Below are positions 31,561 to 33,411 of a stretch of 64,000 bases of DNA, piece by piece. The stretch spans positions 2,063,001-2,127,000 of the forward strand of contig NC_064767.1 in the NCBI RefSeq assembly GCF_011397635.1, written 5' to 3'. The notes below the pieces were generated by a model. That model did no database searches and was not told the origin of the DNA. It worked only from the letters and a program-made list of their open reading frames with translations. Position 1 is the first letter of the stretch. Each line of letters starts with the position of its first letter. Made by a program: the position numbers and the translations under genes. This stretch comes from Epinephelus fuscoguttatus. Taxonomy: Eukaryota > Chordata > Actinopteri > Perciformes > Serranidae.

Positions 31561-32157
31561 CTGAATTTCCCCTGGGCAGTTCATAAAGTATATCTTCTTC
31601 TTCGACTTCTAAATCTGCTCCTTTAAGTATTTCTGTTCTATAGATGGCGATCAAAGAGGACAGCAAACCAAGAATTTAATTACAGTGGAACTTGTTCTCT
31701 GTGTATAAGAAAGCTCTTCAATCTTGAAACAGTACATTTTTAAAAGGAATTCAATTAGTTTTTAAAGTTTTCTTTGTTTAAGATACGGAGAATTCTCTGA
31801 AGAGTATTTAATCCCTCATCTTAAAAAAACCCTCCAAATATTGAGACACATATTTATTTATATTTACACTGCTCAAAAACTGAACACTCAATGGTCACAG
31901 TCTAACAGGAAGTCAGTTAAACTTCAGGGATATCAATGTGTCCATTCAGGAAGCACAAGTGATTGTGAGTCAGTTCCAGCTGCTTTGGTGCAAATCAAAG
32001 TGACAACAGGTGCAATGGAGAGGCAAAAGCAAGAGAAGCCCCAAAAAGGGAATGGTTTTACATGTGGTGTCCACAGACAGTTGCTCTCTCCTTATCCTTC
32101 CTGACTGATTCTTCTCTAGTTTGGTCTTCTGCTAGTGTCCTTGGCACTACTGGTAGC

Positions 32158-32461
32158 ATGAGGCCGTACCTGCAGCCCAGTCAGGTTGATACCAGATACC
32201 AGGAGACCGGCCGTTACACCAGGAGAGCTGGACAGGGCCGTAGAAGGGCATCAACCCAGCAGTAGGACCGCTATCTGCTCCTTTGTGTGAGGAGGAACAG
32301 GAGGAGCACTGCCAGAGCCCTACAACATGACCTCCAGCAGGCTACTGGTGTGCATGTTTCTGACCACACTGTCAGAAACAGACTCCATGAGGGTGGCATG
32401 AGGGCCCCACGTCCTCTAGTGGGACCTGTGCTCACAGCCCAGCACCGTGCAGCTCCATCAT
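32158..32461 (+). pseudogene. Tc1-like transposase, N-terminal part
   Basis: From ATG 32158 the frame reads RYQETGRYTRRAGQGRRRAS, then a single in-frame stop (TAG at 32263-32265, where CAG is expected). The same frame continues with RRNRRSTARALQHDLQQATG and VSDHTVRNRLHEGGMRA, ending VGPVLTAQHRAA. These are the paired helix-turn-helix DNA-binding domains of a Tc1-like transposase. The frame then jumps directly to SFLLVQ. In full-length relatives FLLVQ lies far downstream in GPGFLLVQDNARPH of the DDE catalytic region. The gene therefore has an in-frame internal deletion plus one nonsense change. Confidence 0.85.
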
Positions 32462-32462
32462 T

Positions 32463-33411
32463 CCTCCTGGTGCAGAGGGCCCTGGGTTCCTCCTGGTGCA
32501 GTGGGCCCTGGGTTCCTCCTGGTGCAGTGGGCCCTGGGTTCCTCCTGGTGCAGAGGGCCCTGGGTTCCTCCTGGTGCAGAGGGCCCTGGGTTCCTCCTGG
32601 TGCAGAGGGCCCTGGGTTCTTCCCAGTGCAGAGGGCCCTGGGTCCCTCCTGGTGCAGAGGGCCCTGGGTTCCTCCTGGTGCAGAGGGCCCTGGGTTCCTC
32701 CCGGTGCAGAGGGCCCTGGGTTCCTCCCGGTGCAGAGGGCTCTCGGTTCCTCCTGGTGCAGAGGGCCCTGGGTTCCTCCCGGTGCAGAGGGCTCTGGGTT
32801 CCTCCCGGTGCAGAGGGCCCTGGGTTCCTCCTGGTGCAGAGGACCCTGGGTTCCTCCCGGTGCAGAGGGCCCTGGGTTCCTCCTGGTGCAGAGGGCCCTG
32901 GGTTCCTCCTGGTGCAGAGGGCCCTGGGTTCCTCCTGGTGCAGAGGGCCCTGGGTTCCTCCTGGTGCAGAGGGCCCTGGGTTCCTCCCGGTGCAGAGGGC
33001 CCTGGGTTCCTCCTGGTGCATTGGGCCCTGGGTTCCTCCTGGTGCAGAGGGCCCTGGGTTGCTCCTGGTGCAGAGGGCCCTGGGTTCCTCCCGGTGCAGA
33101 GGGCCCTGGGTTCCTCCTGGTGCATTGGGCCCTGGGTTCCTCCTGGTGCAGAGGGCCCTGGGTTCCTCCTGGTGCAGTGGGCCCTGGGTTCCTCCTGGTG
33201 CAGTGGGCCCTGGGTTCCTCCTGGTGCAGTGGGCCCTGGGTTCCTCCTGGTGCAGAGGGCCCTGGGTTCCTCCTGGTGCAGTGGGCCCTGGGTTCCTCCT
33301 GGTGCAGAGGGCCCTGGGTTCCTCCTGGTGCAGTGGGCCCTGGGTTCCTCCTGGTGCAGAGGGCCCTGGGTTCCTCCTGGTGCAGAGGGCCCTGGGTTCC
33401 TCCTGGTGGAT
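32463..33411. repeat. 26-bp minisatellite derived from Tc1-like transposase, about 36 copies
   Basis: The unit GGGCCCTGGGTTCCTCCTGG plus TGCAGA (26 bp) is repeated head to tail about 36 times, with a few variable positions (CAGAGGG, CAGTGGG or CATTGGG, and CTGG or CCGG). It encodes part of GPGFLLVQ, the transposase segment just before the DNARPH motif. The 26-bp period is not a multiple of three, so each plus-strand frame reads the same 26-residue cycle shifted by one base. The unit has no stop trinucleotide on either strand, so long ORFs arise automatically. Confidence 0.97.

What the first reader, a model, noticed from the sequence alone, without database searches (positions are those of the whole stretch)
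31867..33411. A transposase gene fragment became a 36-copy minisatellite
The Tc1-like transposase frame runs through its helix-turn-helix domains, jumps without loss of frame to SFLLVQ, and FLLVQ then starts a 26-bp array of about 36 copies. In full-length Tc1-like genes the segment GPGFLLVQDNARPH is in the catalytic region, so the repeat unit is a piece of that codon run. This shows the birth of a minisatellite from within a transposon: an internal deletion followed by amplification of the sequence at the junction.
Basis: partly seen in the sequence, partly recalled or inferred. Interest (0 to 1): 0.75.

Follow-up and report, generated by a model that had tools for sequence, protein, structure and literature searches.

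The report
Minisatellite grown inside a Tc1 transposon
In a fish-like genome, a 26-letter piece of a jumping gene's own coding sequence, bracketed by a chance 9-letter repeat, has multiplied into tandem arrays in about a third of the examined copies of that jumping gene, so one can see a minisatellite before, during and after its birth.

Summary
The array is real: 36.5 copies of a 26-bp unit at 32461-33408, behind the 5' half of a Tc1-like transposon (TIR at 31865). The proposed order (deletion first, then amplification of the junction) is wrong. Other copies in the same genome that lack the window's deletion carry the same array in place in the gene. The window's junction was found once genome-wide, and no junction sequence is in the unit. 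Unexpanded copies show the seed: CTGGTGCAG twice, 26 bp apart, so one slip yields exactly this unit. Of 90 copies sampled, 59 have one unit, 28 have 2-66, 3 have none. Arrays carry copy-private variants (growth in place) and variants shared between insertions (arrays carried along). The window copy belongs to a subfamily with a deleted first helix-turn-helix (55 places); 22 of 24 that keep the site are expanded. That subfamily lies at one end only of 22 chromosome-size contigs. Initiation by short flanking direct repeats (Haber and Louis) and arrays riding on transposons are known; this is a new, unusually complete example. How many births were independent is not settled by the trees.

The parts
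31865..31879 (+). 5' terminal inverted repeat start of the Tc1-like element (TA + CACTGCTCAAAAA)
   Evidence: Pattern match, only one in the window on either strand; the 400 bp before it match none of 12 other loci tested
31867..32463 (+). 5' half of the transposon, 5' UTR and N-terminal transposase remnant
   Evidence: 48 listed matches, from 40 scored of 1205 candidates; apart from the window itself the long ones are 82-99% identical
32178..32207 (+). Junction of the subfamily's deletion of the first helix-turn-helix (reads QVDTRYQETG)
   Evidence: 55 places genome-wide with up to 3 mismatches, reversed control 0; undeleted counterpart in P0003
32263..32265 (+). TAG stop in the transposase frame of the window copy
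   Evidence: Three-frame translation
32290..32454 (+). Second helix-turn-helix, HTH_Tnp_Tc3_2
   Evidence: Pfam PF01498 E 2.3e-15, residues 2-56 of the stretch given
32456..32463 (+). Private deletion junction CATCA/TTC, TTC present on both sides; about 230 bp or more of catalytic-domain coding lost
   Evidence: Comparison with L004; unique in the genome
32461..33408 (+). 26-bp minisatellite, 36.5 units; in its natural phase 36 units from CTGGTGCAG at 32467
   Evidence: TRF and unit tables
33403..33408 (+). Partial last unit CTGGTG and 3' breakpoint; 3' half and 3' TIR of the element missing
   Evidence: Unit table; no post-array block in the window

Best explanation
The Tc1-like transposase gene encodes Y-A-G-A-V-G-P-G-F-L-L-V-Q-D-N, in which CTGGTGCAG occurs twice, 26 bp apart. 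Slippage or unequal exchange between these two 9-bp repeats duplicates exactly the 26 bp from one repeat to the next (shown: unit, seed, copies with 1, 2, 3 and more units; inferred: the molecular event). The duplicate then grows and is partly homogenised inside individual copies. Some array-bearing copies went on moving, or were duplicated with their flanks, carrying the array with them. The window copy is one of these, from a subfamily that had lost its first helix-turn-helix and so probably moved with transposase made elsewhere (inferred). Afterwards it lost about 230 bp or more left of the array, across a 3-bp TTC match, and everything right of the array, leaving the array joined to the helix-turn-helix remnant. 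No function for the array is indicated.
For: Seed: 18 of 34 single-unit copies have an exact CTGGTGCAG pair 26 bp apart; the other entries in the 15-row list of short direct repeats are all one CACG microsatellite. Series: 90 copies, 59 with one unit, 28 with 2 to 66, 3 with none. Among 50 elements TRF finds the 26-bp array again and again at this site; its other matches are weak and scattered, apart from an A-rich one in three duplicated copies. One unit is the common state in relatives: 69 of the 120 listed of 275 homologous proteins hold the motif [GA].GP.[FL]..[MVLI]QD[ND]; 3 of 120 show repeated array words, one of them (P0002) holding the motif too. Left 9-mer exact in 23 of 28 expanded against 33 of 59 single copies, Fisher p 0.018. 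Private variants multiplied in L060, L123, L151, L152; in 22 copies the within-copy unit distance is 1.46 against 1.92 between copies, 0 of 2000 permutations as low. Shared variants: CATTGGG in the window and L003, L004, L007, L010; CCGGTGCAG in the window, L015, L020. In-place arrays and unique junction. Known model: passages of PMC6947457 and PMC3389668.
Against: AU tests do not reject one clade for all expanded copies (p 0.28 and 0.23); for the older expanded copies p is 0.13 in one alignment and 0.045 in the other. So recurrent birth rests mostly on unit variants, and homogenisation inside an inherited array would also make units alike within a copy. Array state is clustered on the tree (11 changes against a shuffled mean of 16.5; 2 of 200 shuffles as low), which points to inheritance in part. 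Contraction back to one unit cannot be excluded for any single copy. The link with 9-mer integrity was not significant in the first 50 copies (11 of 16 against 19 of 34, p 0.54), and homogenisation could inflate it. Neighbouring units in the window array are not significantly more alike than shuffled ones (lag 1 p 0.41; lag 4 p 0.058).
Confidence: 0.87

Rival explanations
1. One reading: an internal deletion joined HTH to GPGFLLVQ and the junction sequence was then amplified.
For: The window copy does have a deletion directly before the array.
Against: Copies without this deletion carry the array; the unit holds no 5'-side sequence; the junction is unique; variants are shared with copies that lack the deletion; other copies have other deletions into the array.
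Confidence: 0.03
2. One single birth: the array arose once in an ancestral element and every array-bearing copy descends from it; single-unit relatives nested among them are contractions.
For: AU tests do not reject one clade for all expanded copies; array state is clustered on the tree; A and C variants at unit position 10 occur together in several copies, such as L009, L126, L149, L150.
Against: 11 to 13 changes by parsimony; copy-private variants multiplied within arrays; two 2-unit copies (L029, L063) consist of ancestral units only; 50 of 59 single units keep the ancestral T at position 10, while 11 of 28 arrays have A or C as the commonest letter there; differently spaced duplications of the same codons in other records (P0122, P0123).
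Confidence: 0.2
3. The array was kept or driven because a secondary structure of the unit stalls replication.
For: The unit is G+C-rich with a GGGCCC palindrome (sequence).
Against: Predicted DNA folding of three units is no better than shuffles on either strand (z +1.2 and +0.8).
Confidence: 0.05
4. The array is a host minisatellite into which, or next to which, a Tc1 element inserted.
For: None found.
Against: The unit is the element's own coding sequence in its own position in 28 of 90 sampled copies at many places.
Confidence: 0.01

Closest known systems
Minisatellites initiated between 5-10 bp flanking direct repeats (Haber and Louis 1998, model as described in passages of PMC6947457 and PMC3389668)
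   Same: Unit is exactly the stretch from one short direct repeat (9 bp) to the next; later growth of the array.
   Different: Here many copies of the unexpanded precursor and of 2-3 unit stages lie in one genome, inside a DNA-transposon coding region.
Alu-derived minisatellites (Jurka and Gentles, as described in a passage of PMC3389668)
   Same: Short direct repeats inside a dispersed element seed tandem arrays.
   Different: Retroelement, non-coding; here a Tc1-like transposase gene.
Tandem repeats riding on MITEs in Xenopus (Xmix/Xstir, Hikosaka and Kawahara 2004; miDNA4, listed as a Tc1-mariner MITE, Scalvenzi and Pollet; seen in passages and reference lists of PMC9659126 and PMC6947457)
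   Same: Array inside a transposon that is carried along when the element spreads.
   Different: Those are MITEs; here the array interrupts the catalytic domain of transposase-derived elements and single-unit ancestors are seen.
Tc1-like transposons of fishes; Sleeping Beauty (PDB 5cr4)
   Same: HTH plus DDE transposase; array site aligns just before the conserved DN of the catalytic domain.
   Different: Array-bearing copies carry extra 26-bp units there, and the window copy is truncated on both sides of the array.

Membership tests
Tc1-like transposon (Tc1/mariner) | Tc3-type helix-turn-helix in the transposase | tested here: met
   PF01498 in the window, E 2.3e-15
Tc1-like transposon (Tc1/mariner) | DDE catalytic domain | tested here: inconclusive
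   No DDE_3 match in the window reading frame; present in the homologue P0003 (PF13358, 8.2e-19), shortened in array-bearing P0002 and not reported for L009 at E 0.001
Tc1-like transposon (Tc1/mariner) | Terminal inverted repeats flanked by TA | tested here: inconclusive
   5' TIR with TA at 31865, no 3' TIR in the window; TIR-like sequences on both sides found in several other copies
Minisatellite seeded by short direct repeats (Haber and Louis) | Precursor has 5-10 bp direct repeats spaced by one unit | tested here: met
   CTGGTGCAG pair 26 bp apart exact in 18 of 34 single-unit copies
Minisatellite seeded by short direct repeats (Haber and Louis) | Expansion depends on the repeats | tested here: inconclusive
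   23 of 28 expanded against 33 of 59 single copies with exact left 9-mer, p 0.018; p 0.54 in the first 50 copies
Minisatellite (variable) | Copy number varies among individuals | not testable with these tools
   One assembly only; number varies among paralogous copies, 1 to 66
Tandem repeat riding on a transposon | Same array variants at insertions with unrelated flanks | tested here: met
   Shared unit variants between the window, L015 and L020, and between the window and L004; their 400-bp 5' flanks do not match the window's

The most novel reading that the evidence does not exclude
The transposase gene of this Tc1 lineage carries a built-in starter for minisatellites: two 9-mers in the catalytic codons make every inserted copy a seed, so the same minisatellite is born again and again, independently, at many of several hundred places and perhaps in more than one species. 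One array-bearing, helper-dependent subfamily has then colonised a single end of nearly every chromosome, by a mix of transposition and exchange between chromosome ends.
Probability: 0.35. Interest if true: 0.68.

Novelty: new member of a known kind. Interest (0 to 1): 0.52.

Why it matters
How minisatellites start is poorly documented because the precursor is usually gone; PMC3389668 (passages) states that the postulated mechanisms explain only 6% of transposon-derived tandem repeats in human. Here one genome holds 371 places that match the right-hand junction of the site with up to 3 mismatches; of 90 copies sampled 59 are unexpanded and 28 are at various stages of expansion. That is a replicated natural experiment in which the effect of direct-repeat integrity, element age and chromosome position on birth and growth can be measured.

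Tried and rejected
Secondary structure as driver: rejected, z-scores above 0 on both strands. Shared ancestry of the window's deletion with other copies: rejected, junction unique. Window copy as a segmental duplicate of other copies: rejected on the 400 bp 5' of the TIR, which match none of the 12 other loci tested, whereas L002, L003 and L006 match each other. Copies in other collections: exact patterns of more than one unit gave 0 in viral contigs and 0 in genome contigs. Paper searches for a previous report of this array listed none that I could recognise from titles and abstract starts; one search returned no paper. I read passages only, of PMC9659126, PMC6947457, PMC3389668 and PMC2872659, and most subscription literature is not held. 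Genome-wide counts of expanded against single copies, and a count of left junctions, could not be obtained because the search tool stayed busy. Rows: the tree has 57 rows; copies without the array site (L002, L006, L011, L013, L016-L019), L008 and L012 were not in it, and six copies (L003, L004, L005, L007, L015, L020) plus the window were added because they had arrays though no right junction. For some searches six rows flagged as long branches were dropped (L025, L045, L051, L053, L061, L068; two of them, L051 and L053, are expanded); one search also leaves out L003, L007 and the window. Flanks of truncated copies bring some host DNA into these alignments.

Full report
What is there. The window is a 64-kb stretch at about 2.1 Mb on contig C16 of a 1.047-Gb genome in 26 contigs. 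I take it for a bony fish because the named homologous proteins listed are mostly from bony fishes; the species is not given. A Tc1-like element starts with its TIR at 31865, keeps its 5' part with a stop codon in the transposase frame (TAG 32263-32265) and its second helix-turn-helix (PF01498, E 2.3e-15), and then runs into 36.5 copies of a 26-bp unit (32461-33408). The array ends inside a unit, and no 3' half or 3' TIR of the element was found in the window.

The unit is transposase sequence. In a homologue with the whole domain set, P0003, the segment reads PYAGAVGPGFLLVQDNARPH and aligns with the Sleeping Beauty catalytic domain (5cr4, E 2.1e-33) just before its conserved DN; that this D is the second catalytic aspartate is recalled, not tested. 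In array-bearing P0002 the best Pfam DDE stretch shrinks to the part after the array (298-352, against 179-323 in P0003), and for L009 none is reported at E 0.001.

How it starts. Family members with one unit read GCTGGTGCAGTGGGCCCTGGGTTCCTCCTGGTGCAGGACAA: the 9-mer CTGGTGCAG occurs twice, 26 bp apart. Among 34 single-unit copies, 18 have the pair exactly. The repeat unit, in its natural phase, is precisely the distance between these two 9-mers. This is the initiation model of Haber and Louis as described in passages of PMC6947457 and PMC3389668.

How often. A right-junction pattern finds 371 places with up to 3 mismatches and 0 for the reversed control. I read unit number in 90 copies: all 47 exact places, 42 of the 53 listed one-mismatch places, and L010, which came. 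Result: 59 with one unit, 28 with 2 to 66, 3 with none. Counts start from the right junction and stop at larger gaps, so broken arrays are undercounted (L010 has 8 here and 15 by a looser count), and L156 reached the edge of its stretch. In 50 elements TRF found the 26-bp array repeatedly at this site; the other matches inside the element span were weak and scattered, apart from an A-rich one in the three duplicated copies L057-L059.

One birth or many. Parsimony needs 12 changes with 57 rows, 11 with 51 rows (shuffled labels mean 16.5, 2 of 200 as low) and 13 with 48 longer rows. AU tests do not reject one clade of all expanded copies (p 0.28, 0.23); for the older expanded copies p is 0.13 and 0.045. 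So the trees alone do not prove recurrence. Unit variants speak for growth within copies: in 22 copies with 2 to 9 intact units the mean within-copy distance is 1.46 against 1.92 between copies, 0 of 2000 permutations as low, with private variants multiplied in L060, L123, L151, L152; homogenisation of inherited arrays would act the same way. Expanded copies more often keep the left 9-mer exact (23 of 28 against 33 of 59, p 0.018; not significant in the first 50 copies, p 0.54). Other records hold related arrays: P0001, P0002, P0121, P0124 with pieces of the same 26-aa cycle, and P0122, P0123 with a longer, differently spaced unit; their organisms are not named, so they may or may not be other species.

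The array moved. In the 57-row tree the window copy falls in a supported set of nine rows, all expanded (95); six of these rows and the window were added because they had arrays but no right junction, so 'all expanded' is partly by choice. Across that set unit variants are shared between insertions: CATTGGG in the window, L003, L004, L007 and L010; CCGGTGCAG in the window, L015 and L020. The window's 5' flank matches none of theirs where tested. Eight of the nine rows, all but L030, belong to a subfamily that lost its first helix-turn-helix. Its junction pattern has 55 places, reversed control 0. Of these 55, 22 show at least two units in the stretch held (in L107 the second is seen in part), one shows a single unit (L097), one a degenerate single unit (L079), and in 31 no unit is seen because the element is cut, the site is deleted, or the stretch ends (my tally).

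The deletion came later. L004 has 238 bp between CATCATTC and its first CTGGTGCAG. The window copy lacks this stretch and joins at a shared TTC. A search for the junction with up to 3 mismatches returns the window only. L096 and the pair L098/L100 have other deletions into the array.

An unexpected pattern. The 55 subfamily places lie on 22 contigs, always at the same end of a given contig, median 2.1 Mb from the end, 47 of 55 within 5 Mb. Of the 100 listed family places 16 are within 5 Mb, and of the 47 exact ones 7 (Fisher p 3e-13), with 27 of 46 in the same half as the subfamily. One contig length (C10) was estimated. With places closer than 1 Mb merged, 22 of 27 against 14 of 77 are within 5 Mb, and end agreement then rests on only 4 contigs with more than one cluster. 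L098 and L100, on different contigs, share sequence after the array, so exchange between chromosome ends probably contributes. Which end this is (centromere or telomere side) is not known, and no unrelated young transposon was mapped as a control.

Verdict. The birth of a minisatellite inside a transposon is supported, but from 9-bp direct repeats in the gene, not from a deletion junction. The kind is known; the example is unusually complete.

Noticed in passing
G000, 55 places (window copy at C16:2095178): The array-bearing, HTH1-deleted subfamily sits at one end only of 22 chromosome-size contigs, median 2.1 Mb from the end, unlike the listed rest of the family.
   Followed up: partly
L098 (C8:422611-423311) and L100 (C12:43396428-43397128): Copies on different contigs share sequence after the array, so element plus flank was probably duplicated between chromosome ends.
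   Followed up: no
P0122, P0123: Homologous proteins of unnamed source repeat a longer, differently spaced unit around the same codons, suggesting a separate duplication of the same site.
   Followed up: no
window 50917-51581: Another minisatellite, 31-bp unit, 21.5 copies, 92% match; origin not examined.
   Followed up: no
window 28247-28383: 22-bp unit, 6.2 copies, 94% match.
   Followed up: no
window 31050-31435: Repeat also found in L017 (pieces 89% and 81% identical), ending near an ATGG run; looks like a LINE 3' end (recalled, not tested).
   Followed up: no
L009: A copy with 9 units (234 bp, a multiple of 3) keeps a 368-aa open frame through the array into DNAQPH.
   Followed up: partly
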